Assembly (NCBI RefSeq): GCF_003151255.1
Contig: NZ_CP029481.1
Coordinates: 930,001 to 994,000, forward strand
From: Microvirga sp. 17 mud 1-3
GTDB taxonomy: Bacteria > Pseudomonadota > Alphaproteobacteria > Rhizobiales > Beijerinckiaceae
Reading direction: 5' to 3'
DNA: 64,000 nt
Shown here: positions 5,663-64,000 of the stretch, in pieces
How the letters are laid out: every line of letters starts with the position of its first letter
Numbering within the stretch: position 1 is the first letter of the stretch
The notes under the pieces: generated by a model
Seen by the model: the letters and a program-made list of their open reading frames with translations, nothing else
Database searches by the model: none
Told to the model about the DNA's origin: nothing
Translations under genes and position numbers: made by a program

Positions 5663-6862
5663 TCACGCACCCGCCGGCGCGGGAGACGCGGTTTCGCAGA
5701 ACGTGTCGAGCGCCGCGAAGAACCGGTCGAGATCCTCCTGCAGATCCGACAGGGCCTCCACGCCGATGCTGACGCGCAGGACCAGATCCTCTCCGGGCCA
5801 TGGTTGAGCGGTGCGATTGGCCTTGACGGGCATCGGGGCCACCAGGCTCCGGGTCCCGCCCCAGGATGCCCCGATGGCGAAGATCTTCAGGGCATCGAGC
5901 GCCGCGAAGACATGCGGCGTTGCGGCCGGGGTGAAGATGATCCCGAAGACGCCGCTCGCTCCGTTGAAGTCGCGCTTCCAGAACTCATGGCCCGGATTCC
6001 CCGGCAGGGGAGGGTAGAGGATCCGATCCACACTCGGCTGATCGGCGATTGCGGGCAGCAGGCGCCTGGTCGTCTCGGCGCAGTAGTGGAGACGCACCGC
6101 CATCGTCTCCATCCCCCGGAGAACGAGCGAACAATCGTCAGGGGAGACCCCGATGCCCAGGCGGCTCAGTTTGCCCTTGACGGTGGACGCCATCGCCTGA
6201 TCGCGAACCGTAATCGATCCCATCAGCACGTCCGAGTGGCCGGAGAAATACTTCGTCAGCGCCTCGACGACGATATCGGCGCCGTGTTGGAGAGGCTTGA
6301 AGAGCAGTGGGGTGGCCCAGGTATTGTCACAGCCGAGCAGGGCGCCGTGTCGATGGGCAATCTCCGCGAGGCGACGCATGTCCTGGACCTCCATGGTCGT
6401 GGAGCCGGGCGATTCCGCCCAGATCATCCGCGTCCGGCGATCCATCATGCGCTCGAGCTCGTCCGGCGCCGTCGGGTCGTAGAACGCGACGTCGATCCCG
6501 AGCGTCCTGAGATCCTTCTCGGCGAAATCCCGGAGGGGCGGGTAGACCGTGTCGGCGATAAGGATTCGATCCCCCGCTTGGACGAAGGACAGAATCGCGA
6601 CCGTGATCGCGGCCTGGCCGGACGGGACCAGGAAGGTCCTATGGCCTTGCTGGAGAGCGGTGATCTTATGGGCGAGCGTGCGCGAGGTCGGCGTTCCGGA
6701 CAACCCGTAGCTGTAACCCTCGTCGCCGCGCTCATGGCGCTTCTGATAGCTCTGCGCATTCGGGAACGGGATCGTGGATGCCCGATAGACCGGAACTCCA
6801 AGGCTCGCGAAGCCGTCCCGGCTAGCTTCGGAGGAAATGACGCAACGTGTCCAGTCGTCCAT
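5663..6862 (-). CDS. Cys/Met metabolism PLP-dependent enzyme, cystathionine beta-lyase (MetC)-like
   Basis: A 399-residue fold-type I PLP enzyme. The Schiff-base lysine is in EALTKYFSGHSD (about residue 210), with the PLP-binding aspartate in GCDNTWATP and the phosphate-binding SGQAA near residue 80. This is the trans-sulfuration family (MetB/MetC/MetY). It is first in the minus-strand run, 46 bp before the binding-protein gene, and divergent from a LysR gene. Placement with an amino-acid importer suggests a C-S or beta-lyase acting on an imported compound rather than housekeeping methionine synthesis; this is inference. Confidence 0.85.
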   Translation of the reverse strand: MDDWTRCVISSEASRDGFASLGVPVYRASTIPFPNAQSYQKRHERGDEGYSYGLSGTPTSRTLAHKITALQQGHRTFLVPSGQAAITVAILSFVQAGDRILIADTVYPPLRDFAEKDLRTLGIDVAFYDPTAPDELERMMDRRTRMIWAESPGSTTMEVQDMRRLAEIAHRHGALLGCDNTWATPLLFKPLQHGADIVVEALTKYFSGHSDVLMGSITVRDQAMASTVKGKLSRLGIGVSPDDCSLVLRGMETMAVRLHYCAETTRRLLPAIADQPSVDRILYPPLPGNPGHEFWKRDFNGASGVFGIIFTPAATPHVFAALDALKIFAIGASWGGTRSLVAPMPVKANRTAQPWPGEDLVLRVSIGVEALSDLQEDLDRFFAALDTFCETASPAPAGA

Positions 6863-6905
6863 AGGCGCTATCCTTGCTGGGTTCCCTATAGATCATGGTG
6901 ACCCT

Positions 6906-6923
6906 ATTCCGTCCAATACGAAT
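6906..6923. promoter_or_regulatory. Candidate LysR operator in the divergent 6862/6977 promoter region
   Basis: ATTC at 6906-6909 and GAAT at 6920-6923 form an interrupted dyad with a 10-bp spacer, in AT-rich DNA between the MetC-like and LysR genes. LysR regulators usually bind interrupted dyads in such positions. The match to the T-N11-A rule is not exact, so this is only a candidate. Confidence 0.35.
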
Positions 6924-6976
6924 ATTGTGCCTGACTATTCTCTGTGGTTATATGTTTCCTATCCTGTGAGGGCGGC

Positions 6977-7897
6977 ATGAATCAGCGCCAAATCGAAGTC
7001 TTTCATGCCGTAATGACGGCCGGGACGGCCTCCCGCGCGGCGGAGGTCCTGCGTATCTCGCAGCCCGCCGTCAGCAAGGCGATCCAGGAGCTAGAGCGAT
7101 CTGTCGGGTTCGCGCTCTTCGAGAGGATCAAGGGCCGTATGGTCCCGACGCCAGAGGGCCAGCTCTTCCAGCGGGAGGTGGAAGCCTCCTTCCTCGGCAT
7201 GGCGCACCTGCGCAGCATCGCGGCACGGATCCGGGACTTCGGCTCGGGTGAAATTCGTCTGGCCAGCCTCTCGGCGCTGAGCACGAATATCGTTCCGCTC
7301 GCCCTTCGCCGTTTCAGGGACAGGCACCCGCAGGTGGCCATCACTTTGCAGGCCCAATTGTCGTCGACCATCCGCGATCTGGTCGCGTCTGGGCAGTTCG
7401 ATCTCGGCATCGCGGCGGACGAGGTCGACGTCACGGGTGTCGTTGCCCGGCCCTTCATGACCTGTCGCGCCTCGATTGCCGTCTATCCGGGGCACCGGCT
7501 CGAGAGCGCCCGCTCCATAACGGCGGCGGATCTGCATGGCGAGGAATTCATTGCTCTGGCGCCGCAGGACACGACGCGGATGGAGGCGGATTCCATCTTC
7601 GCCGCTGCGCAGGTGCAGCCCCGCATCGTCCTCGAGACGCCGTTCTCGTCAACCGTCTGCGCGATGGTGCGGGCAAAGCTCGGTTGCGGCCTCGTGAATC
7701 CGCTGACCGCCGAGATCTATCTGAACAACGGATTGATCCTGAAGCCGTTCGAGCCGGCCGTGCATTTCCGGACCCTGCTGCTGTTCCCGCTCAATCCAAG
7801 GCCGTCACGGATTCTCCAGGACTGCGTCGAGGAACTGGACCGCGCCGTGGCCGAACTGTCCTCGCAGCTCGGAACCTCCGACGCCGACCTCTTGTGA
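6977..7897 (+). CDS. LysR family transcriptional regulator
   Basis: A 306-residue LTTR. The N-terminal winged helix (residues 1-60) contains MTAGTASRAAEVLRISQPAV and FALFER; a periplasmic-binding-like effector domain follows (about 90-295). The ATG at 6977 gives the canonical MNQRQIEVFHAV start, with a GAGGG site a few bases upstream. It is divergent from the MetC-like gene that heads the importer operon, so it probably controls that operon in response to a substrate or product. Confidence 0.92.
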   Translation: MNQRQIEVFHAVMTAGTASRAAEVLRISQPAVSKAIQELERSVGFALFERIKGRMVPTPEGQLFQREVEASFLGMAHLRSIAARIRDFGSGEIRLASLSALSTNIVPLALRRFRDRHPQVAITLQAQLSSTIRDLVASGQFDLGIAADEVDVTGVVARPFMTCRASIAVYPGHRLESARSITAADLHGEEFIALAPQDTTRMEADSIFAAAQVQPRIVLETPFSSTVCAMVRAKLGCGLVNPLTAEIYLNNGLILKPFEPAVHFRTLLLFPLNPRPSRILQDCVEELDRAVAELSSQLGTSDADLL

Positions 7898-8012
7898 ACC
7901 ATTCCGGTGCCGCCCGGTACCGCGGCGTGCCCGATCCTTGGGGGCATCGCCCCGGCATTGAAAAGCAGCGGCACGGCGACATAACCTCGGCCGAGAGGGC
8001 GGGAGGTCCGAC

Positions 8013-8456
8013 ATGACCACAATGACGGTCCGGTTGCGGAGCGTTCCCGAGACGCAGGCCTGTCTCGGCTGGGCGGGCGCCCATTCGGTTGTCGTCGACC
8101 GGCCGGCCGGCAAAGCCGGTGGGCAGGGGCTCGGCTTCAATGGCGGGCAGCTGCTTGCCCTCGCCATCGGCGGCTGCTTCTGCAACGATCTCCATTATGT
8201 CGCTCACGCCATGGGAATCGAGCTCGTCTCGGTGGCCGTCGACGTTACCGTGAAGTTCGAAGGCGAGCCTCTCCTGGCGACGGGTGCGGATGTTCGGGTC
8301 TCTGTCGAGGCCGCCGACGCGAAGGCCGATCTGGACGCGTTGATCGCGCGGGCGCAGGCGACGTCCACCGTCAGCAATTCCATCGCGCGCGGCGTCCCCG
8401 TTCGCGTCTCGCCGGTTTCCGGTCCGGCGCCGGAGATCCTGGCGCTCTCCCGCTAG
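8013..8456 (+). CDS. OsmC family protein
   Basis: A 147-residue OsmC/Ohr-fold protein. The conserved first cysteine region is present as GGCFCNDLHYVA (about residues 54-65). The second active-site cysteine, normally just before the VSN motif, appears replaced: the segment reads TSTVSNSIARG. Classical OsmC and Ohr reduce organic hydroperoxides with two cysteines, so this copy may not be a standard peroxidase. It overlaps the end of the convergent secreted-protein gene by 4 bp. Confidence 0.85.
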   Translation: MTTMTVRLRSVPETQACLGWAGAHSVVVDRPAGKAGGQGLGFNGGQLLALAIGGCFCNDLHYVAHAMGIELVSVAVDVTVKFEGEPLLATGADVRVSVEAADAKADLDALIARAQATSTVSNSIARGVPVRVSPVSGPAPEILALSR

Positions 8457-9202
8457 AACGACAAAGGCTTGCCCGAGACCGGCTCCAGGGCGTCGCCCTT
8501 GCGCTCGTAGATGACCGTGGCAGGCGGCAAAGGCTTGCCGTTGCGCTTGCCGCGATAGGCGAGGGTCAGACGGCCTGCGGGATCCACCTTCCAGGATCCG
8601 TTGATGTCCGTGCAGGACTTGCCTTTCTCGACCGCATCGCAATCGCTCCGCGAGAGCACGATGCCGTCCTCCGGGCTGATCCGCACCGCATGCCCGTCGC
8701 GGAAGATGAAGACCTGAAGGATGCTCGTGGTCTCGCCCTGGAACGTGCCGCCGCCCTGAATGACGATCCCGTCATCGGCGCCCATGCGCATGGGCGTGAT
8801 GGCCGTCACGTCTCCCCAGGAGCCCGCCTCCGTGAATTCCGGGTGCCGCGCCACCGTCACGAGCTGCTTCCCGTCCCGCCGCAGGAAGGTGGCGGTGATT
8901 TTCGCGCCGCAGCCATGGCAGGCTTCGCCCGGCACCTGGCCGAAGGTGAAGAGCACCACCGCGTCGCCGAAAGCGTTCGCCTGGTACGGGTAGATGCAGG
9001 GCTCGGGCTCCCCCTCGTCCGGATCGGCCTTGCGTTCGGGCACATTCGGATAGGCGGCCTGCATGGCGCTGCGCAACAGGGCGTGCCCACGCAGGGCGGC
9101 TGCGGAACCGGGGCAGAGCGGGCCCGCCCCGCCCTGGGCCTGCACCTCCGGGGCGGTCATCAGAAGGCTCGCGGCTGCGAGCAGAACAAGACGCCCGATC
9201 AT
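8453..9202 (-). CDS. Secreted protein of unknown function
   Basis: A 249-residue protein with a clear signal peptide (MIGRLVLLAAASLLMT, cleavage likely after VQAQ). The mature part has paired cysteines, including CHGCG near residue 105, and beta-rich segments. I do not recognise a family. The start at 9202 was chosen because it begins the signal peptide; a longer frame extends about 32 codons upstream. It is convergent with osmC and overlaps it by 4 bp. A periplasmic location is predicted. Confidence 0.65.
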   Translation of the reverse strand: MIGRLVLLAAASLLMTAPEVQAQGGAGPLCPGSAAALRGHALLRSAMQAAYPNVPERKADPDEGEPEPCIYPYQANAFGDAVVLFTFGQVPGEACHGCGAKITATFLRRDGKQLVTVARHPEFTEAGSWGDVTAITPMRMGADDGIVIQGGGTFQGETTSILQVFIFRDGHAVRISPEDGIVLSRSDCDAVEKGKSCTDINGSWKVDPAGRLTLAYRGKRNGKPLPPATVIYERKGDALEPVSGKPLSF

Positions 9203-9340
9203 GGGAACGACACCGACCCTCAAGGCCGATGACGGCCCGCGGTTCCATAGCCGATTTCCATTGCGCCGCAACGGAAACTTCGCAGTGCTCCGCCACACTT
9301 TCCGGCCCTGTGGCGCCCTTGCGACGGACCGGAGATGTTT

Positions 9341-10384
9341 TTAGCGGGAAGGGCCGGGACGCTCCGAGGAGGCCGCCCAGATGTTCACGCCGCCCTCGAC
9401 CGCGTGCCGGTCGATCTCGGCCAGTTCCTCCGGCGAGAACGCGAGGGTCTTCAGCGCCGCCACGCAATCAGCGATCTGCTCGGGGCGGCTCGCGCCGATG
9501 AGCGCGGTCGTCACCCGCGGGTCACGCAGCACCCAGGCCAGGGCCATCTGGGCCAGGGTCTGGCCGCGCTTCTCGGCGATGGCGTTGAGACCCCGGATCC
9601 GGCGCAGGTTGTCCTCGCTCAGGAAGCTCTGGCGCAGGGACTTTCCGGCCGCCGCGCGGCTGCCTTCCGGAACTCCGCCGAGATATTTGCCCGTGAGCAT
9701 GCCCTGGGCGAGGGGCGAGAACACGATGGTGCCCATGCCGGATTCTTCCAGCACGTCGAGGAGCCCGTCCTCCTCGATCCACCGGTTAATCATGGAATAG
9801 CTCGGCTGGTGGATGATGCAGGGCGTCTTCAGTTCGCGCAGGATCGCCACCGCCTCGCGGGTGCGGCGGGCATTGTAGGACGAGAGGCCCACATAGAGCG
9901 CCTTGCCCTGCCGCACGGCGGAATCGAGGGCCATCATGGTCTCTTCCAGCGGCGTCTCCGGGTCGAAGCGGTGGGAATAGAAGATGTCCACGTAATCGAG
10001 ACCCATGCGCTTCAGGCTCTGGTCGAGGCTGGAGAGCAGGTATTTGCGGCTGCCCCATTCGCCATAGGGGCCCGGCCACATGCGGTAGCCCGCCTTGGTG
10101 GAGATCACGAGCTCGTCGCGAAAAGCTCGGAAATCCGTGCGCAGCACCTCGCCGAAGAGGCTCTCGGCGGCGCCGGGCGGCGGGCCGTAATTGTTGGCGA
10201 GGTCGAAATGGGTGATGCCGAGGTCGAAGGCCGTGCGGCACATCTCACGGGCATTGGCGGCGGTCCGGTCCTCGCCGAAATTGTGCCAGAGCCCCAGGGA
10301 GATCGCCGGCAGCTTGAGGCCGCTGCGGCCGCACCGGTTGTAGATCATCGAATCGTAGCGGGTCTCGGCGGGCAGGTAGGACAT
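9341..10384 (-). CDS. Aldo/keto reductase, YghZ (L-glyceraldehyde 3-phosphate reductase)-like
   Basis: A 347-residue NADPH-dependent AKR. The catalytic tetrad is visible: Asp in HFDLANNYG, Tyr in the same segment, Lys in STKAGY and His in YSHRFDPETP. The length, the FDLANNYGPPPGAAE segment and a C-terminal SRPEQI nucleotide-binding segment fit the YghZ/Gpr subgroup, related to potassium-channel beta subunits, which reduces small aldehydes. It is 72 bp downstream of the alcohol dehydrogenase gene and may be cotranscribed. Confidence 0.9.
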   Translation of the reverse strand: MSYLPAETRYDSMIYNRCGRSGLKLPAISLGLWHNFGEDRTAANAREMCRTAFDLGITHFDLANNYGPPPGAAESLFGEVLRTDFRAFRDELVISTKAGYRMWPGPYGEWGSRKYLLSSLDQSLKRMGLDYVDIFYSHRFDPETPLEETMMALDSAVRQGKALYVGLSSYNARRTREAVAILRELKTPCIIHQPSYSMINRWIEEDGLLDVLEESGMGTIVFSPLAQGMLTGKYLGGVPEGSRAAAGKSLRQSFLSEDNLRRIRGLNAIAEKRGQTLAQMALAWVLRDPRVTTALIGASRPEQIADCVAALKTLAFSPEELAEIDRHAVEGGVNIWAASSERPGPSR

Positions 10385-10456
10385 GGTCGTCTCCGGAAAT
10401 TCGCGCGTCGGACTGAACGCTCGCACATCGCGCCCCGCCGGTTCAAGACGGCTTCG

Positions 10457-11497
10457 TCAGAAGCGGGTGATCACCGTGATGCCCGTCCCCTCGAAGCGGT
10501 CCATGGCCATGAGCGCTTCGGGTGCCTCGTCGAGAGCGATATGCCGGCCGATGAGCCGCTGCGGCGCGAGCTTGCCGGTCGCGATCATGGCCATCATCGC
10601 GTCGTAGCGGAAAGCCTGCATGCCGTGACTGCCGTAGATCTCGAGCTCATGCGCGATGACCTTGTCCATGGGGATGACCGGGCGGGCATGGTCCCCGAGC
10701 ATCAGCCCCACCTGCACGTGGCGCCCGCGGCGGCGCAGATTGGAGATGGAGTTGAAGCAGGTGGCAGGATGCCCGAGCGCATCGATGGAGACATGCGCGC
10801 CGCCATCCGTGACGTCCCTGACGGCCGCCACCACGTCCGTGCCGGGGGAGGCTTGGATTGTCGCGACGGCGCCGAGCGTGCGCGCGAGATCGAGCTTGTC
10901 GGGCGTAAGGTCCACCGCCACCACGTTGGCGCCCATGGCGGACGCGATCATGATGGCCGAGAGGCCGACGCCGCCGCAGCCATGTACCGCCACCCACTCG
11001 CCCGGCTTCACGCGGCCCTGGTCCACCACGGCCCGGAAGGAGGTCACGAACCGACAGCCGAGGCTGGCGGCGGTCGCGTAATCGAGGCTCTCCGGCAACG
11101 CAACGAGGTTGAGGTCAGCATGGTCGAGCGCCACGTATTCGGCAAACGAGCCCCAGGCCGTGAAGCCGGGCTGGAACTGGTGTTCGCAGACCTGCTGGTT
11201 GCCCGAATGGCATTCCCGGCAATGGCCGCATCCGGCCACGAACGGCACCGTCACCCGGTCGCCGACCTTGAAGCGCGTCACCTGCCGGCCGGTGGCGAGC
11301 ACCGTGCCGGCGAGCTCATGCCCGGGCACGTGCGGCAGCACGATGTCGGGGTCGTGCCCCATCCAGCCGTGCCAGTCGCTCCGGCACAGACCCGTCGCCT
11401 CCACCTTCACCACCACGCCCTCGTCGGAGGGCTCCGGATCCGGCACATTCATGATGCGCGGCGGCGCGGAGAACTGCTCGTAGACGACGGCTTTCAT
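10457..11497 (-). CDS. Zinc-dependent alcohol dehydrogenase (MDR family)
   Basis: A 346-residue medium-chain dehydrogenase. The catalytic zinc site is visible ([10 protein letters not shown] with GHE downstream), as is the structural zinc cluster [15 protein letters not shown] (about residues 94-108) and a Rossmann motif [10 protein letters not shown]. The ATG at 11497 gives the usual MKAVVYE start. Relatives oxidise primary or secondary alcohols with NAD(P). The substrate is not determinable; the aldo/keto reductase downstream suggests aldehyde/alcohol interconversion or detoxification. Confidence 0.92.
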
Positions 11498-11599
11498 GGG
11501 CGGCCTTTCCTCATCTCGCAACGGGGAGGTTTAGCCCGAGGGTGACGATGGGGCAAATACATCGCGGGCCCTTCCAGGAGAGGTGAAAGGAGGAGGGGA

Positions 11600-12157
11600 T
11601 CAGGCCCGGTAGCGCCCGAACACCACCTTGGTCTCCCCGTAATCCCGCCGCTCGATCTCGTCGAAACCGTCCGGCAGCGAGACGGTGACGCCTTGCGCTT
11701 CCTCGACCACCACGAGCGCATCGGGCACGAGCCAGCCGCCGGCCGCGCAGGAGGTGAGCGCCTTCGGGGCCAGGTCCTTGCCGTAGGGCGGGTCGCAGAA
11801 GACGAGCGAGAAGGGGGCGTTCGGTGCCGCCGCACCCATGCGGGTGGCGTCGCGGCGGAAGAGGCGCGTGGCGCCGCCGGCGCCGACGGCTTCCACGTTT
11901 TCGCGGATCAGGCCGCGCGCCTGGGCGCCGTCGTCCACGAACAGCGCGAAGGCGGCCCCGCGGGAGAGTGCTTCCAACCCCATGGCGCCGGTGCCGGCGA
12001 AGAGGTCGAGCACGCGCGCGCCCTCGACCGGGTCGTCATAGGAATGCTGGAGGATGTTGAAGAGCGTCTCGCGCAGGCGGTCCGAGGTCGGGCGGATCGC
12101 ATCCGAGCTCGGCCCCTTGAGCGAGCGGCCGCGCCAGCGCCCGCCCACGATTCTCAT
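11600..12157 (-). CDS. rsmD: 16S rRNA (guanine(966)-N(2))-methyltransferase RsmD
   Basis: A 185-residue class I methyltransferase. It begins MRIVGGRWRGR, then RPTSDRLRETLFN, the SAM loop DLFAGTGAMGLEALSRG and the catalytic DPPYG (about residue 120). These are diagnostic of RsmD, which methylates G966 in helix 31 of 16S rRNA. It follows the pseudouridine synthase gene by 10 bp on the same strand, giving a two-gene rRNA-modification operon. Confidence 0.96.
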   Translation of the reverse strand: MRIVGGRWRGRSLKGPSSDAIRPTSDRLRETLFNILQHSYDDPVEGARVLDLFAGTGAMGLEALSRGAAFALFVDDGAQARGLIRENVEAVGAGGATRLFRRDATRMGAAAPNAPFSLVFCDPPYGKDLAPKALTSCAAGGWLVPDALVVVEEAQGVTVSLPDGFDEIERRDYGETKVVFGRYRA

Positions 12158-12167
12158 GGATCAGCCC

Positions 12168-14138
12168 TCACGGACGGCGGCCTCGCGGCCCCCCTTTGGA
12201 GCCGCCGCGCGGACCTCCCTTGAAGCCGCCACCTTTCGGGCCGCCCTTGCTGAAGCTGCCGGGACGTCCCTTCCCGGCGCCGTGCGGCGCGGAGCCACGG
12301 GGCGAGCCGTCGCCCCGGGGCGGGCCACGGCGGGGCCGGTCGTCGTCCCCACGGGCGCGGAAGGGCCTGTCGCCCTCGTCGCGCCGCGGCTTGAACGGCC
12401 GTCCGCCGGCCTCATCACGGGATCGGAAGGGTCGATCCCCCTCCGGGCGTGGGCGGCGCGGGCGCTCGCCCTCATCGCTGCGGGCCCTGAACGGCCTGTC
12501 GCCGGCTGCGCGGCGCGGGCGGTCCTCGTCGTCCCGTCGCGGACGGGAGAACCCGCCCTCGCGTTCGCCCCTCGGGGTTCCTTTCGACACTCCCCGCGGG
12601 CCCGGCCTGCGGGTCCGCTCCTCGTCGCGGGCCGGAGCTTCGTCCCGCGTCTCGCCGACCAGGCGCTCGACCACCACCTTCCGGCCTTCGCCGGACTCGA
12701 TGGCGCCGACTCGCTGGCGCGGTCGCTCCGCATTGGCCGCGCGGGCCGCCTTCGGGTCGGCACCGCGGCGCGGCGCCTTGTGCGGCGCGGATTCGTCCTC
12801 GTCGGTCGCGCGCCAGACGCTCCGCTTCGCTTCCAGGCGGGAGGGGCGCTTCTTCGGCTCCTCATCCTCAAAGCCCCGGCGCTCGTCGCCGCCGCGGCTG
12901 CGGAAGGGCCGCTCGTCCTCGTCCCGATGGCGGCGCGGGCGCTCGTCGTCCCGTCCCCGGCCGAAGCGGGAGGGGCGCTCCTCGCGGTGCTCGCCGCGTT
13001 CCGCACGTTCCTTCTTCGGCGACCCGAAGGGCGCGATGGGCTCACGTACGGGGCTTTCGAAATCGACGCCCGCCTCAGTCGCGAGCGCAGTGCCGAGCTG
13101 GTCCTTGAGGACCTTGGTGCGGACTTCCTCGACCAGGCCCTGCTCGATGTCCCCGAGCTGGAACGGCCCGAAGGACAGGCGGATCAGCCGGTTCACCTGA
13201 AGGCCGAGATGCTCGAGGATGCGCTTGACCTCACGGTTCTTGCCCTCGCGCAGGCCGAGTGTCAGCCACACGTTGTCGCCCTGCATCCGGTCGAGCCGTG
13301 CCTCGACGGGGCCGTATTCCATATCGTCGACCGTGACGCCGTCCTTCAGCCGGTCAAGGTCCGCCTGGGTCACCTCTCCGTGGGCGCGCACCTTGTAGCG
13401 GCGCAGCCAGCCCGTTTCCGGATGGGCGATCACCTTGGCGAGGCCGCCGTCATTGGTGAGGAGCAGGAGCCCTTCCGTGTTGATGTCGAGGCGGCCGATG
13501 GCCACCACCCGGGGCAGGTCCTCCGGCAGGCTCTCGAATACGGTGGGGCGTCCCTCCGGGTCGCGGGCCGTGGTCACGAGGCCGCGCGGCTTGTGGTAGA
13601 GCCAAAGGCGCGTGCGCTCCTTGGCCGGCAGGGGCTCGCCGTCCACGGTGATCTTGTCGGCCGCCGTCACGTTGATGGCCGGGGAGGTAAGCACCTCGCC
13701 GTTGAGGGTCACGCGGCCCTCGGCGATCAGCACCTCTGCGTCCCGGCGCGATGCGATGCCGGCCCGGGCGATGACCTTGGCGATCCGCTCTTCGGCCGGC
13801 TCGATGGCCCGGGTCTCGGGCTGGGCTTCGCGGGCCGCGCGCGGGCGCTCCTCGCGCACAGGCGCGGGACGGCGCGGGCGCTCGTCGCCGCCACGGCCGC
13901 GGAAGGGACGGTCTCCCTCCTCGCGGCGGGGGCGGAAAGGCTTGTCGCCATCGGCCCGCGGACGGCGCGGACGGTCGTCGGCGTCACGGCTGCGGAACGG
14001 CTTGTCGTCGCCACGCGCGCGGAACGGCCGGTCGCCGGCCTCGCGGGGCTTGCGGAAGGGCCGGTCACCGGAAGTGCGGCCACGATCGGGGCGTCCGGGA
14101 GGACGGCCCTTACGATGATCATCGTTGCTGTCGGTCAT
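12168..14138 (-). CDS. rluB: 23S rRNA pseudouridine synthase RluB-type with long disordered tails
   Basis: The core has an S4 RNA-binding domain (about residues 115-165) and an RsuA/RluB catalytic domain (about 180-350) with the catalytic aspartate in GRLDINTEGLLLLTNDG and REGKNREVKRI. Family members are usually 250-300 residues; this one is 656. The excess is a roughly 110-residue N-terminal tail and a roughly 280-residue C-terminal tail built from repeated Arg/Asp/Gly/Glu units such as DRPFRARGDD and RPRR, predicted to be disordered and nucleic-acid binding. The ATG at 14138 was chosen because it starts the charged tail and avoids overlap with tadA. It is divergent from tadA by about 40 bp. 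Confidence 0.9.
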   Translation of the reverse strand: MTDSNDDHRKGRPPGRPDRGRTSGDRPFRKPREAGDRPFRARGDDKPFRSRDADDRPRRPRADGDKPFRPRREEGDRPFRGRGGDERPRRPAPVREERPRAAREAQPETRAIEPAEERIAKVIARAGIASRRDAEVLIAEGRVTLNGEVLTSPAINVTAADKITVDGEPLPAKERTRLWLYHKPRGLVTTARDPEGRPTVFESLPEDLPRVVAIGRLDINTEGLLLLTNDGGLAKVIAHPETGWLRRYKVRAHGEVTQADLDRLKDGVTVDDMEYGPVEARLDRMQGDNVWLTLGLREGKNREVKRILEHLGLQVNRLIRLSFGPFQLGDIEQGLVEEVRTKVLKDQLGTALATEAGVDFESPVREPIAPFGSPKKERAERGEHREERPSRFGRGRDDERPRRHRDEDERPFRSRGGDERRGFEDEEPKKRPSRLEAKRSVWRATDEDESAPHKAPRRGADPKAARAANAERPRQRVGAIESGEGRKVVVERLVGETRDEAPARDEERTRRPGPRGVSKGTPRGEREGGFSRPRRDDEDRPRRAAGDRPFRARSDEGERPRRPRPEGDRPFRSRDEAGGRPFKPRRDEGDRPFRARGDDDRPRRGPPRGDGSPRGSAPHGAGKGRPGSFSKGGPKGGGFKGGPRGGSKGGPRGRRP

Positions 14139-14178: not shown

Positions 14179-14682
14179 ATGGATAAACCCGTTTCCGGCA
14201 AAACCGATCCCGGACTCGATCCGATGGGTGCGGCCTTCGCGGAGGCCCATGCGGCGGCCGCGCGCGGCGAGGTGCCGGTGGGCGCGGCCGTGGTCAAGGA
14301 CGGCCGGGTAATCGCCTCCGCCGGCAATGCCCCGCGCGCCCTGCGTGACCCCTCGGCCCATGCAGAGATCCTGGCCATCCGCCGGGCCTGCGAGGCCCTG
14401 GACGACGAGCGCCTGGCGGGCTGCGATCTCTATGTGACGCTCGAGCCTTGCACCATGTGTGCGGCCGCGATTTCCTTCGCGCGCATCCGCCGGATCTATT
14501 TTGCGGCCTCGGACCCGAAGGGCGGCGCCGTCGAGAACGGCGTCCGCTTCTTCCACCAGCCCACCTGCCACCACGCCCCGGAGGTCTATGGCGGCATCCG
14601 CGAGGGGGAGGCGGCGGCTTTGCTCAGGGAGTTCTTTGCGGAAAGGCGCGAGGGATCCATGCCCCCGGGCGAGGGGAGCTGA
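14179..14682 (+). CDS. tadA: tRNA-specific adenosine deaminase TadA
   Basis: A 167-residue deaminase. The zinc site HAEILA (His ligand, catalytic Glu) and PCTMCAAA (two Cys ligands) are intact, and EVPVGAAVV near the N-terminus fits TadA. It converts A34 to inosine in tRNA-Arg(ACG); that tRNA gene is present in this window at 34230. The last dozen residues after FFAERRE vary between species. Confidence 0.96.
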   Translation: MDKPVSGKTDPGLDPMGAAFAEAHAAAARGEVPVGAAVVKDGRVIASAGNAPRALRDPSAHAEILAIRRACEALDDERLAGCDLYVTLEPCTMCAAAISFARIRRIYFAASDPKGGAVENGVRFFHQPTCHHAPEVYGGIREGEAAALLREFFAERREGSMPPGEGS

Positions 14683-59812: not shown

Positions 59813-59889
59813 GGCGGAGTAGCTCAGTTGGTCAGAGCAGAGGAATCATAATCCTTGTGTCGGGGGTTCAAATCCCTCCTCCGCTACCA
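59813..59889 (+). tRNA. tRNA-Met (CAT), elongator type
   Basis: Acceptor GGCGGAG pairs with CTCCGCT (a G-U at the end), anticodon stem GAGGA/TCCTT with loop ATCATAA giving CAT, T-arm GGTTCAAATCC, encoded CCA. It lacks initiator features, so it is elongator Met; tRNA-Ile2 is less likely. The island begins at its 3' end. Confidence 0.93.
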
Positions 59890-60279
59890 ATCAAATCAAA
59901 GGCTTAATCCTCTTGCGAGATTCTGGCCGAAGCGTTGAGTACCCACTGAGTACCCAGCGCAGTTGTTGCGCAGGCCTCGCCTCGTGATTGGGCGGCTCCC
60001 CCGTTTAGGGACGAACGTGTTCTCACTTGTTGAGCAATGTGAACCACTTGTTACTTTTCATGCAGCAGTTATCGTGACGATATAACGAAACAATGTATTT
60101 GGCTTCATTGTTCTTAAGGCACCAGAGGCGAGCTGACATGGGCAGGTCGTTCCAGCACGAGATCACAGGTTCGAGCCTTGCTCAGGATATCCGATTACAT
60201 CGGGTTTAGCGCTCTTCTAGCTTTGTGGCGACCTGATATAGGTAGCGAAAAAGCAGCGCTATAAGGAGAGCGAGCAGAT
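59890..60279. other. tRNA-proximal island junction without a gene
   Basis: A 390-bp AT-richer stretch from the tRNA-Met 3' end to the kinase gene. A tandem GAGTACCCA-C / GAGTACCCA-G lies at about 59937-59956, 48 bp after the tRNA. A fragment with a T-arm-like GGTTCGAGCC occurs near 60170. No integrase gene or intact ORF is seen. This fits a left attachment region of an integrated element, not proven. Confidence 0.55.
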
Positions 60280-61599
60280 ATGGCTCTGACAAAAATCAGA
60301 ACGCTCGGAAGTGGCGGCTTTGGCGTCGTTGACTTAGTTGAGGACGATGCCGGAGCGCACTTTGCTCGTAAAACGTTTCACGTCCTTCAGAACCTTCCGC
60401 CTCAGATCATCGAAAATGTACGCCGTCGTTTTGCGCGTGAAGCCCGTACCCAGATGGGTATCCGGCATCGCAACATTGTTCCCGTGGTGGATGGAGATTT
60501 AGATCATGATCCACCTTATTATCTTATGCCGGTAGCCGTCAGCAGCCTTCAGGACGATCTTGCACGTGATGGCACCTTAGGCGGGGCGTGGATCGCGGCT
60601 ATAGCTGATATTGTGGCAGCATTGGATGAGCTTCATTCAATGCACATCTATCACAGAGATCTTAAGACGCAGAACGTGCTGCGCTTTGAAGAGGGTTCAG
60701 AGCAATTCTACGCAGTGAGTGACTTCGGACTCATCGCGATGAATGAAACCCGCATTTCTGCTCTCACAATGACAGGCATGGCGAAGGGCAGCGACTATTA
60801 CACCGCGCCAGAAATTACGTCTGATCTCAGACGTGCCTCACCTCAGTCCGACATCTATTCGCTAGGATGTATCATCCATGATATCGTCGGAACTCAGCCA
60901 AGGATTCCTTGCCATGAGATAAGAGAGGATGGGCCTTATGGTGCGATCCTGCGGAATTGCACACGAACTGATGCCTCGCGGCGCTTCAAATCGGCGAAGG
61001 CTGTCCTTGATGCTCTTATCAGTGTTAGCGTAACTCTCCCGCCTCTTACCAACGAGCGAACCTCTGGGTTTGTCGAACAACTCAATCAGCACGAACCCTT
61101 AAGCGAAGCCGCTTGGCGTGGCTTGGTGGAGCTTGTGGAGGATGAGTTCGGGTCTAACGACGCTAGAGCTATCCTTGTGAGTGTTGGGTTGGATCAAGCC
61201 TCTGACCTATGCACCAGACATCCTGAACTCGGAGATCGATTGGGGCAAATTTACGCTCGTTGGGTTCACGGCTCGTCGTTTGCTTTTGAGAGATGTGACG
61301 CTCTCGCTAACGTTCTGGAAGTCTTTGTTGACGCTGGATCGTTCGAGACGAAGGTAGATTGCCTAATGGCCATGCTTGAACTCGGCACTTCCCACAACAG
61401 GTGGTACGTAGAGAGGAAATTTTTCCAGCTATGTGGTCCTAGTATGGACGATAACCTTGCGCGCCGCCTTGGCGTTGAGTTTCGGGCTGCGGGCTCAGAT
61501 TTGTGCCGCACCATTGGGCGTGCAGAGTTGTCGATTCAAGTCAGCCGTGGACAGCTTCATCCTGTTCTGGCTCAGATTCTGGAAGAAGTCTGCACATGA
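60280..61599 (+). CDS. Ser/Thr protein kinase with uncharacterised C-terminal region
   Basis: A 439-residue Hanks-type kinase. Gly-loop GSGGFGVVD (residues 10-18), ATP lysine K31, catalytic HRDLKTQN (H125, R126, D127), DFG (148-150), APE (176-178). All catalytic residues are present, so it should be active. The kinase domain ends near 250; residues 255-439 are soluble, helical and unrecognised. There is no transmembrane segment. AAGGAG lies upstream. It overlaps the PP2C gene by 4 bp, so kinase and opposing phosphatase are made together. AT-rich codon use differs from the core genome. Confidence 0.92.
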   Translation: MALTKIRTLGSGGFGVVDLVEDDAGAHFARKTFHVLQNLPPQIIENVRRRFAREARTQMGIRHRNIVPVVDGDLDHDPPYYLMPVAVSSLQDDLARDGTLGGAWIAAIADIVAALDELHSMHIYHRDLKTQNVLRFEEGSEQFYAVSDFGLIAMNETRISALTMTGMAKGSDYYTAPEITSDLRRASPQSDIYSLGCIIHDIVGTQPRIPCHEIREDGPYGAILRNCTRTDASRRFKSAKAVLDALISVSVTLPPLTNERTSGFVEQLNQHEPLSEAAWRGLVELVEDEFGSNDARAILVSVGLDQASDLCTRHPELGDRLGQIYARWVHGSSFAFERCDALANVLEVFVDAGSFETKVDCLMAMLELGTSHNRWYVERKFFQLCGPSMDDNLARRLGVEFRAAGSDLCRTIGRAELSIQVSRGQLHPVLAQILEEVCT

Positions 61600-62306
61600 G
61601 ATTCTCATATGCATCCTTCTCCGAACGAGGGCCAAGGGCAGAGAACGAGGACGCTATAGGCGTTTGGCATCTAAGCGACGATTGGATGGCTGTAGCGATT
61701 GCGGACGGCCTGGGTGGGCACATGGGTGGGCGTAGAGCATCGGCTCTAGCAATCGAACACTTTGGATCGCTCCTGCAAGAACCTACGATCCCTGATCTTC
61801 TCCTCATTGCCCAGCAGATCCACGCGGTCCTCAGAGCTGAACAGAATCAATCGCCTGAAGTTCGAGGAATGGCGACAACATTCTCCGCAGCTCTGATGGT
61901 TGAGGATCGTATGCGGTTCGTCCACGTAGGGGATACAAGAATATCGATTCAACGTGCCGCCGGAATAAAGCGTATCACCCAAGACCATACCGAAGCATAC
62001 CAACTGCTGGTGGCTGGAAAGCTCACGCGTGAGGAGTATGAGAACTATTCAAGAAAAAATATCCTCGTGAGTGCGCTCGGAATTCATAGCCTTCCAAAGA
62101 TCGATGTTGGCGAAATAGTTCTCCAAGAGGGAGACAAAGTATTTTTTACGTCTGATGGCGTGCATAATAATATTCCAATCCAAGAAATGAAATCTATATC
62201 AGATCGATCTGAGGGTCCCGAAGAGATGTGCTTTGAAGTTCGGAGAATTGTGGAACAAAGAAAGCCGGAAGATAACTATTCATTCGTTGCGATTTATATA
62301 GATTAG
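61596..62306 (+). CDS. PP2C-family Ser/Thr phosphatase (partner of the 60280 kinase)
   Basis: A 236-residue PPM phosphatase. Metal-binding motifs are complete: RGPRAENEDAIG, IADGLGGHMGG, FVHVGDTR, FTSDGV and PEDNYSFVAI. The ATGA overlap with the kinase stop indicates translational coupling. It should reverse the kinase's phosphorylation. It is of the stand-alone PrpC/Stp type and quite unlike the second PP2C at 63453. Confidence 0.93.
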   Translation: MRFSYASFSERGPRAENEDAIGVWHLSDDWMAVAIADGLGGHMGGRRASALAIEHFGSLLQEPTIPDLLLIAQQIHAVLRAEQNQSPEVRGMATTFSAALMVEDRMRFVHVGDTRISIQRAAGIKRITQDHTEAYQLLVAGKLTREEYENYSRKNILVSALGIHSLPKIDVGEIVLQEGDKVFFTSDGVHNNIPIQEMKSISDRSEGPEEMCFEVRRIVEQRKPEDNYSFVAIYID

Positions 62307-62769
62307 TGCATAAAACGGTTGTCGCTATTAGACTTCTAGGTTGAGAAGGGGCGATCTTAGTCCGAGATAATAGGTTGATGCCTCAACCCCCCCCTCATAT
62401 CCCCCCGCTTTCCCAAAGGCACTGGTTGGGCAGCGCTCACTCCGCAGATAGTTAGATCGAGCATCAACACATCGGGGATCAACGAATGTTTGGTCAATCG
62501 ATGCTGTCGGAAGCCTATGCTGCCTAAATGCGAAGATTTCTGGGACCAAGACTTAGACCAAACGTCAAGGATGACACAAACGGAGCACGGTCGTTCGCGA
62601 AGAAGCTCAAATCAAGCTGGTGATAGGTGTCTATGCTGTGTCAAATACGAAACGCTCTCCAAATTTCGCATACCACAGCATAGGTAGGGAAATTGACCCA
62701 ATTGCTATCTAGTCACGCCAGGTCTTAGCATTAACATCTGCTTAGGATCCGCGCGCATTTGGAAATACG
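62307..62769. other. 463-bp gap between the kinase-phosphatase pair and the vWA gene
   Basis: No convincing gene on either strand: the longest frames (about 65-73 codons) have no supported start site or family. It contains two C-runs (eight C at 62387-62394, six at 62401-62406). Its AT-rich 3' part probably holds the promoter of the vWA gene. It may also be a scar of a lost gene. Confidence 0.5.
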
Positions 62770-63456
62770 ATGACAAATACAGAGAGCTTCGAGCAACGGC
62801 CCTTTGGTGATGCTGTCTTTGCCGAAAATCCAGAAAATAGATGCCCCGTTCTGTTGTTGCTGGACAATTCTGGCTCAATGGGTGGCGCTCCTATCAATGA
62901 GCTAAACAAAGGTCTTCAGGTATTTCGTGATGAACTGTTCGCCGACTCGCTTGCTGCAAAGCGAGTCGAAGTTGGAATAGTCACGTTTGGACCTGTGAAG
63001 GTCGAAATGGATTTCACTGGTATCCAGCACTTCTATCCGCCAACACTCTCGCCTGACGCTGACACTCCAATGGGCGCTGCGATCGAGAAGGGACTGGAGC
63101 TTCTTCGCCAGCGTAAGGATACGTACAAGGCGAATGGGATTTCGTATTATCGTCCATGGGTATTCCTCATTACCGATGGTGGCCCAACCGACAGTGTCAG
63201 TCGCGCTGCGGAGCTGATTCGTGAGGGCGAAAACTCAAAGAATTTCATGTTTTTCGCAGTTGGAGTGGAAGGCGCAAATTTCGAGGCTCTTAAAAAACTA
63301 AGTGTCCGTGAACCGCTCAAGCTGCAAGGTCTGCAATTCCGTAGCCTATTCCAGTGGCTGTCTGCCTCCCTGTCTACTGTATCTAAATCTCAGATTGACG
63401 AACTTCCTCCGCTTTCCAATCCGACTGCCCCAAACGGGTGGGCAGTTGCTGGATGA
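62770..63456 (+). CDS. TerY/YegL-type von Willebrand factor A domain protein
   Basis: A 228-residue single vWA domain. The metal site (MIDAS) is complete: [27 protein letters not shown] and [10 protein letters not shown]. The sequence order [34 protein letters not shown] and [14 protein letters not shown] matches YegL/TerY. In TerY-P triads such a protein works with a PP2C phosphatase and a kinase; its binding partner is unknown. It overlaps the next PP2C gene by 4 bp. Confidence 0.9.
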
Positions 63457-64000
63457 AAGACCGGAAGTGGAGTTGGGTTGGGGCGTGTTCAACGGGCACG
63501 TCCCACCTAAGGGCAGGCCTTGGCTGTGACGATGCAGGGGGCTGTATCGAGTTTCAGGCGACAGAGGGACCAACGCTGGTCGCAATCGCATCTGACGGAG
63601 CAGGCAGTGCGGAGTTTTCGCGCATTGGTGCTGGTATCGTAACCAGAACCTTTTCCCGTTGCGCTTTTGATTTCCTTTCGAGCGGCGGTCGAGTCTCCGA
63701 GGTAAACTCGGAACGTGCTAGCGAGTGGCTTGATGCTATTCGCGACCGCATAAACCAAGCGGCGTCTAGAGAAAACGCGCAACCTCGGGCATTCGCAGCG
63801 ACATTGGTTGGCTGTATCGTCCAAAGAGAACATTCAGTTGTCATCCATGTTGGAGACGGAGCCTGTGTTTACCGTCTTCACGGAAGTGGAACTTGGGAAG
63901 TTCCTAGTTGGCCAACCCAAGGTGAGTACGCTTCAACAACATACTTCGTAACGGATGACCCGCAGCCTCGTGCAACCATCAAACATATAGATGGAGGCGT
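63453..64000 (+). CDS. PP2C phosphatase of the YegK/PphC type (3' end cut by window)
   Basis: About 182 residues are visible from the ATG at 63453, open to the window end. [38 protein letters not shown] and [13 protein letters not shown] are PP2C_2 motifs as in E. coli YegK/PphC. The start shares ATGA with the vWA stop. Family length (about 250) means 70-80 residues lie beyond the window, where a YegI-like kinase would be expected next. Confidence 0.9.

What the first reader, a model, noticed from the sequence alone, without database searches (positions are those of the whole stretch)
59890..64000. tRNA-Met-linked island with two kinase/phosphatase modules and a TerY/YegL vWA protein
Directly visible: directly after a tRNA-Met 3' end the DNA becomes AT-richer and carries an intact Ser/Thr kinase, a PP2C, a TerY/YegL-type vWA protein and a second, different PP2C that runs off the window. 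Established: TerY-P triads (vWA, PP2C and kinase; E. coli yegL-yegK-yegI) occur in tellurium-resistance and phage-conflict type islands, but their target is unknown. Inference: this is a TerY-P-like system extended by an extra coupled kinase-PP2C pair, possibly a stress or phage-defence phospho-switch. The four-gene combination in this order is not one I recognise as described.
Basis: partly seen in the sequence, partly recalled or inferred. Interest (0 to 1): 0.82.

Follow-up and report, generated by a model that had tools for sequence, protein, structure and literature searches.

The report
tRNA island with two phosphorylation modules
A 12.4-kb mobile DNA element sits in a bacterial tRNA gene and carries two separate sets of protein-phosphorylating and -dephosphorylating enzymes; relatives of both sets travel on phages or plasmids, which suggests defence or stress switches that are still untested.

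Summary
After tRNA-Met come a Ser/Thr kinase (Kin1), a PP2C (PP2C1), a TerY/YegL vWA protein and a second PP2C (PP2C2), in DNA of 52% GC against 65% for the rest of the window. Beyond the window follow a 1060-aa YegI-like kinase (Kin2), an Mrr-type nuclease, a RepB primase, an excisionase-like regulator, a tyrosine integrase and a 48-bp exact copy of the tRNA 3' end: a real integrative element. The TerY-P triad is complete (homologous to E. coli yegL-pphC-yegI); Kin2 adds a tail with peptidoglycan-binding domains. The "extended TerY-P" reading fails: the parts are separate modules. The Kin1-PP2C1 pair occurs without the triad in eight other loci (a ninth has the kinase alone), among them two P2-like prophages between the gpA-type and portal genes, three small plasmids, and a 2.3-kb Bosea segment bounded by tRNA-Thr-end repeats. 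None of 19 other triads has it. Kin1 has an alpha-helical C-terminal domain (SHNRWYV motif) and differs from the KKP defence module (one kinase, no CSD or FHA). Most likely it is a KKP-like kinase/phosphatase toxin-antitoxin defence. Function is inferred, not shown.

The parts
59842..59889 (+). attL: 3' part of tRNA-Met (gene 59813-59889), 48 nt repeated exactly at the far end (attR, beyond the window, L002:14243-14290)
   Evidence: shuffles
60280..61599 (+). Kin1: 439-aa Ser/Thr kinase; kinase domain about 4-250 with K31, HRD, DFG and activation-loop T163/T165; all-helical C-terminal domain about 258-439 with the SHNRWYV motif
61596..62306 (+). PP2C1: 236-aa PP2C phosphatase, start codon overlapping the Kin1 stop by 4 nt
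62307..62769 (.). 463-bp spacer between the two modules; only short ORFs (not scanned), no promoter-like or terminator-like site listed
62770..63456 (+). TerY/YegL-type vWA protein with MIDAS residues (D32, S34, S36, T99, D136)
   Evidence: the MIDAS assignment is recalled knowledge applied
63453..64000 (+). PP2C2: PphC/YegK-like PP2C, continues past the window to 64232; an ATG at 63453 gives an ATGA overlap with the TerY stop (the listed ORF starts at GTG 63438). The rest of the element lies beyond the window and is placed in the full report in L002 coordinates
   Evidence: start choice is inference

Best explanation
A 12.4-kb integrative element inserted at the 3' end of tRNA-Met carries two independent phosphorylation modules and an Mrr-type nuclease. 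Module 1 (Kin1-PP2C1) is a mobile kinase/phosphatase cassette. Inferred mechanism: PP2C1 is the antitoxin that keeps the activation loop of Kin1 (T163/T165) dephosphorylated; when a phage product blocks the phosphatase, Kin1 autoactivates, phosphorylates host proteins chosen through its helical C-terminal domain, and stops growth and phage production, as KKP does with two kinases. Module 2 is a TerY-P triad. Inferred mechanism: the membrane kinase Kin2 reads the state of the cell wall through its peptidoglycan-binding tail and signals inward; PP2C2 resets it; TerY is a MIDAS-type scaffold or switch. Shown: gene content, order, overlaps, att sites, separate occurrence of the two modules, mobile location of relatives, Kin1 active-site residues. 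Inferred: toxicity, antitoxin role, trigger, targets, tail topology and wall sensing.
For: Element: 48-nt att repeat, integrase next to attR, lowest GC in the region. Kin1 in 2 of 48 genus genomes while the tRNA-Met stretch matched in 47 of 48. Module 1: of 10 distinct loci of the Kin1 family, PP2C follows directly in 9 and the triad is beside it in 1, the window. Two are P2-like prophages with the pair between the gpA-type replication gene and the portal gene, in KV7 with a DUF3850 gene and a small ORF also in between; three are Acinetobacter plasmids of 8.6-16 kb; in the Bosea MAG the pair is bounded by a 16-nt repeat of the tRNA-Thr end. In the 4 loci measured the pair is 11-15 points lower in GC than its flanks. 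SHNRWYV is invariant in the 8 sequences, which were found without using that motif, and in the 11. Working model: KKP, where PfpC counteracts toxic kinases and a phage protein inhibits it (PMC11341870, abstract and sections 8, 9, 10, 12, 29 read). Module 2: 19 of 19 other triad loci keep TerY, PP2C and kinase in this order (chosen because they hold a family member), 3 of them IMG/VR contigs and 3 plasmids; PHROGs holds viral families that cover nearly all of TerY and the YegI-like part of Kin2. Tail: hydrophobic segment 653-671 followed by PG_binding_1.
Against: No toxicity, phosphorylation or phage assay exists for any Kin1-PP2C1 pair here. KKP toxicity needs two kinases and its CSD and FHA domains, which Kin1 lacks. 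L083 is a Kin1-like kinase with no PP2C found. E. coli yegI-pphC-yegL sits at a chromosomal site with no integrase in the 10.5 kb viewed, so triads are not always mobile. The catalytic loop of Kin2 lacks the usual Asn (GDVNHSG), and D140 is not among the invariant columns of the 11-row alignment, so its activity cannot be assumed. The tail faces outward only if the stretch 392-421 crosses the membrane twice; the hydropathy windows there overlap, and one crossing would put the tail inside. The two modules could interact in this one host.
Confidence: 0.55

Rival explanations
1. One reading: one five-gene system, a TerY-P triad extended by a functionally coupled kinase-PP2C pair.
For: All five genes lie head to tail on one strand inside one element, with similar GC.
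Against: Seen once. 0 of 19 other triads have the pair in the DNA held; 9 of 10 Kin1-family loci lack the triad in the DNA held, though only about 0.65 kb (Bosea) and 1.1 kb (M. vignae) follow the PP2C. A 463-bp spacer separates the modules while genes inside each overlap or lie 3 bases apart. Kin1 and Kin2 show no significant BLASTP match (best E 0.61).
Confidence: 0.08
2. Kin1-PP2C1 serves the mobile element itself (control of excision, replication or of co-resident prophages) and any phage defence is a by-product, as for KKP control of Pf prophages.
For: Relatives sit in prophages, plasmids and an integrative element; KKP has this dual role (PMC11341870, sections read).
Against: Vehicles differ widely (P2-like prophage, small plasmid, tRNA element), as expected of a portable accessory gene; no integrase-like ORF was found in the 13 kb held around the Bosea pair.
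Confidence: 0.2
3. Ordinary signalling cargo: stress-responsive kinases and phosphatases without a role in phage conflict.
For: TerY-P genes are known from tellurium/stress contexts (recalled); E. coli carries a chromosomal triad; TerY-like genes occur in 2,311 of 72,556 plasmid records.
Against: Rarity and mobile location of Kin1: 2 of 397 order genomes; neighbouring Mrr nuclease; prophage copies.
Confidence: 0.2

Closest known systems
TerY-P triad, E. coli yegL-pphC(yegK)-yegI
   Same: vWA, PP2C and YegI-type kinase in this order; 62%, 35% and 33% identity over the aligned parts
   Different: Kin2 has an extra hydrophobic segment and a tail of about 390 aa with peptidoglycan-binding domains; carried on an integrative element; in E. 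coli yegJ lies between pphC and yegI on the other strand
KKP (kinase-kinase-phosphatase, PfkA-PfkB-PfpC)
   Same: Hanks-type kinase with PP2C, mostly in prophages, P2 among them (PMC11341870 section 8)
   Different: Kin1 is a single kinase, lies before the PP2C, and has a helical SHNRWYV domain instead of CSD/FHA
PD-T4-6, Stk2 and MADS MAD6 kinases
   Same: Kinase domain matches (PADLOC best E 7.8e-33)
   Different: The best matches cover the kinase domain (about 3-250 of Kin1); PD-T4-6 and Stk2 are single-kinase systems (Stk2 from PMC11341870 section 12; PD-T4-6 recalled)
PADLOC candidate family PDC-M21C
   Same: Matches PP2C1 over residues 1-188 (E 6.2e-9) and 3 of 4 relatives' PP2C scanned
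   Different: No PDC-M21 kinase component is among the 25 best of 33 matches shown for Kin1; the make-up of PDC-M21 is not given by the tool
Short kinase-PP2C pairs in Escherichia phage Flotzy, Cronobacter phage phiES15 and Vibrio plasmid p251
   Same: Kinase followed by PP2C (viewed for Flotzy and p251; for phiES15 from match positions 156 bases apart, region not viewed)
   Different: The annotated Flotzy and p251 kinases are 255 aa, and matches in all three end at residue 200-236 of Kin1, so the SHNRWYV domain is not matched

Membership tests
TerY-P triad | vWA protein of the YegL type with MIDAS residues | tested here: met
TerY-P triad | Adjacent PphC/YegK-type PP2C | tested here: met
   35% to PphC
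TerY-P triad | Adjacent YegI-type kinase with helix-hairpin-helix region | tested here: met
   33% over nearly all of YegI, including the region where the L009 homologue matches HHH_5; P0005 itself has no Pfam HhH hit
TerY-P triad | Kinase activity of the YegI-type protein | not testable with these tools
   K39, D140 and D158 invariant in the 4 kinases, D140 not so in the 11 rows; Asn at D+5 replaced by Gly in the 4
KKP | Two kinases with one PP2C as an adjacent triplet, order PP2C-kinase-kinase | tested here: not met
   Kin1-PP2C1 has one kinase, before the PP2C, in the window and 8 relatives
KKP | Cold-shock domain (PF00313) on one kinase and FHA (PF00498) on the other | tested here: not met
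   Pfam finds only kinase models in Kin1 at E 0.01
KKP | Joint kinase toxicity neutralised by the phosphatase | not testable with these tools
   needs expression assays
PD-T4-6 kinase | Full-length match to the family, not only the kinase domain | tested here: inconclusive
   best match spans residues 7-207 of Kin1
PADLOC PDC-M21 | All components of the candidate system present | tested here: inconclusive
   component C matches PP2C1 (E 6.2e-9); other components not seen, and only 25 of 33 Kin1 matches are shown
tRNA-borne integrative element | att repeat of the tRNA 3' end at both ends, integrase inside, atypical composition | tested here: met
tRNA-borne integrative element | Same flanks joined without the element in a relative (empty site) | tested here: inconclusive
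   tRNA 3' flanks of 29 relatives read; variable by eye, flank after attR not searched for in them
tRNA-borne integrative element | Excision as a circle | not testable with these tools
   needs PCR on cells
Mrr-type restriction nuclease | Mrr_N plus Mrr_cat domains | tested here: met
   (E 4.9e-9 and 4.4e-26)

The most novel reading that the evidence does not exclude
Kin1-PP2C1 is an undescribed minimal kinase-phosphatase defence system: one kinase whose helical SHNRWYV domain replaces the second kinase and the CSD/FHA domains of KKP, spread as a two-gene cassette among P2-like prophages, small plasmids and tRNA islands; and, in the same element, a TerY-P triad acts as a wall-damage sensor through a peptidoglycan-binding kinase tail, so that the element watches both the envelope and the phage replication stage.
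Probability: 0.25. Interest if true: 0.7.

Novelty: new variant of a known kind. Interest (0 to 1): 0.5.

Why it matters
Kinase-phosphatase toxin-antitoxin defence is known from KKP, which needs two kinases. A one-kinase cassette with a conserved C-terminal domain, found in P2-like prophages, gives a simpler, directly testable case, with an E. coli copy suited to laboratory strains. The peptidoglycan-binding tail on a TerY-P kinase offers a concrete hypothesis for what TerY-P triads sense.

Tried and rejected
Rejected: one fused five-gene system. Rejected: membership of Kin1-PP2C1 in KKP (with PMC11341870 sections 8 and 29). Rejected: ordinary core operon (48-nt att, integrase, Kin1 in 2 of 48 genus genomes).

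Literature: open-licence PMC library only, no preprints, most subscription journals missing. Ten searches answered (four of them with no paper: 36, 53, 76, 111). None of the listed titles and abstract starts describes a one-kinase/PP2C phage cassette or a TerY-P triad tested against phages. Only PMC11341870 was opened (abstract and sections 8, 9, 10, 12, 29). Statements on TerY-P from earlier work, on the P2 gpA-gpQ interval as a known accessory/defence position, and on activation-loop Thr sites of such kinases are recalled.

Rows not examined: plasmid hits H7 and H8 (27-29% identity) and the kinase-domain-only hit G665; TerY hits G320 and G202 (cut or near contig ends); the triad of G074 (L011) was left out of the 19 because no DNA upstream of TerY was held; of 2,311 plasmid records with TerY 3 were viewed. 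L082 and L083 were found by a scan whose two patterns include SHNRWYV, so their agreement with that motif is not independent. L081 is the KV7 prophage again and is counted once.
Full report
Observation. The window is G000:C1:930001-994000 of a 4.40-Mb single-contig genome. The genus is Microvirga by inference: a locus of G019, of the same genus, is identical over 4,314 bases to a Microvirga vignae contig.

What lies beyond the edge (L002 coordinates; window coordinate = L002 + 58000). PP2C2 ends at L002:6232 and a 1060-aa kinase, Kin2, lies at 6236-9418 (+). On the opposite strand follow an Mrr_N/Mrr_cat nuclease (9452-10396), a RepB_primase protein (10443-11540) with a winged-HTH protein (11386-11970), an excisionase-like HTH protein (12118-12372), a 171-aa protein without a family match (12454-12969) and a tyrosine integrase (12947-14107). 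A 48-nt exact copy of the tRNA-Met 3' end stands after the integrase at 14243-14290; 50 shuffles gave at most 11 nt. GC is 52.0% inside and 65.0% in the rest of the window. Kin1 is in 2 of 48 genus genomes, its own included, and the primase in 1 of 48, its own, while the tRNA-Met stretch matched in 47 of 48. In the 29 relatives whose site I read, the DNA after the tRNA is highly variable by eye, apart from two look-alike pairs (L063/L078, L077/L079); I did not show an empty site with the same two flanks. This is an integrative element.

The TerY-P triad is complete. Against E. coli K-12, TerY is 62% identical to YegL over 187 residues, PP2C2 35% to PphC, and Kin2 33% to YegI over nearly its whole length. 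In 19 other triad loci (G007 and G070, 3 IMG/VR contigs, 3 plasmids, E. coli K-12, and 10 of the 15 order genomes with TerY) the order TerY-PP2C-kinase is kept in 19 of 19, with yegJ on the other strand between PphC and YegI in E. coli. Loci were chosen because they hold a family member, so this shows order, not frequency. On L037 the triad lies between a terminase and a portal gene.

The Kin2 tail. Kin2 has hydrophobic segments at about 392-421 and 653-671, then a tail with two PG_binding_1 stretches. Of 19 triad kinases compared, 4 have a segment near 652-671 and 3 (this one, G007, G146) share the tail. The same tail type occurs on secreted-looking proteins of the genus. The tail faces outward only if the stretch 392-421 is a hairpin with two crossings; one crossing would put it inside. 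Outward topology and wall sensing are inference. The catalytic loop reads GDVNHSG; the usual Asn at D+5 is Gly in all four kinases, and E. coli YegI also departs there.

Module 1 occurs on its own. Ten distinct Kin1-family loci were found: the window; M. vignae, 375 bp after tRNA-Lys (87% identity); a Bosea MAG (57%); IMG/VR L040 (50%); E. coli KV7 (46%; IMG/VR L081 is the same prophage at 99.98%); IMG/VR L082 (46%); three Acinetobacter plasmids (37-39%); and L083 (32-33%). PP2C follows directly in 9 of 10; L083 has none that I could find. Spacing in the 8 measured is -10 to +57 bases. The triad is beside it only in the window, with the caveat that about 650 bases (Bosea) and 1.1 kb (M. vignae) of DNA after PP2C were available and that L040 is a 4.2-kb contig. 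In L040 and KV7 the pair lies between the gpA-type replication gene and the portal gene of P2-like prophages; L040 holds only the end of the replication gene, and in KV7 a DUF3850 gene and a small ORF stand in between. With the L040 pair as DNA query, KV7 is the one match in 5,426 E. coli genomes. In Bosea a 16-nt repeat of the tRNA-Thr end brackets a 2.33-kb segment holding the pair; 500 shuffles gave at most 13. No such repeat was found at the M. vignae pair. In the four loci measured the pair is 11-15 GC points below its flanks.

Comparison with known systems. KKP (PMC11341870; abstract and sections 8, 9, 10, 12 and 29 read) joins a PP2C and two kinases with CSD and FHA domains, is toxic when both kinases act without the phosphatase, protects against phages, and appears to be triggered when a T4 protein binds the phosphatase. 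Kin1-PP2C1 fails the two architectural features, so it is not filed as KKP, but it may work the same way. The best PADLOC kinase hits cover the kinase domain. PADLOC's candidate family PDC-M21C matches PP2C1 (E 6.2e-9) and 3 of 4 relatives' phosphatases scanned, so part of the pair may already stand in a list of predicted systems. PHROGs has viral families for TerY, PP2C2 and Kin2, all of unknown function.

Most likely mechanism. Two portable switches in one element, plus an Mrr nuclease. In the first, PP2C1 restrains Kin1 until infection blocks it, and Kin1 then arrests the cell. In the second, a membrane kinase with a wall-binding tail is reset by PP2C2 and organised by TerY. Gene content, overlaps, att sites and separate occurrence are shown. 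Trigger, targets, toxicity, defence and tail topology are inferred from KKP, from genomic location and from domain content.

Noticed in passing
L036:9850-12199: Kin1-PP2C1 in a Bosea MAG lies on 2.33 kb bounded by a 16-nt repeat of the tRNA-Thr 3' end, with no integrase-like ORF found in the DNA held.
   Followed up: partly
L042, L043, L044: All three Acinetobacter plasmids with Kin1-PP2C1 that I viewed carry a BrnT/BrnA toxin-antitoxin pair downstream of it.
   Followed up: no
L012-L016: In five genus genomes a YegI-like kinase ORF lies next to an ORF resembling the part of Kin2 after its kinase domain; no TerY or PP2C match in the 4.9 kb of each locus, nor in 20 kb around one of them (L026).
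   Followed up: no
L039:9968-13406: A TerY-PP2C-kinase set whose kinase is fused to an FGE-sulfatase domain, on a contig with a terminase gene.
   Followed up: no
L045, L046: Phage Flotzy and Vibrio plasmid p251 carry short kinase plus PP2C pairs; in Flotzy the PP2C is annotated as hypothetical.
   Followed up: partly
G017, G027, G021, G018, G015: Further copies of the tRNA-Met 3' end, which may mark other islands at this site in the genus.
   Followed up: no
L002:14781 to L003:3713 (right of attR): Very large ORFs (2011 and 1010 aa) just right of attR; the start of the second looks RTX-like by eye.
   Followed up: no
L027:6199-7701, L028:8167-9819: The tail of Kin2 is shared with secreted-looking proteins of 500-550 aa in the genus.
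   Followed up: partly
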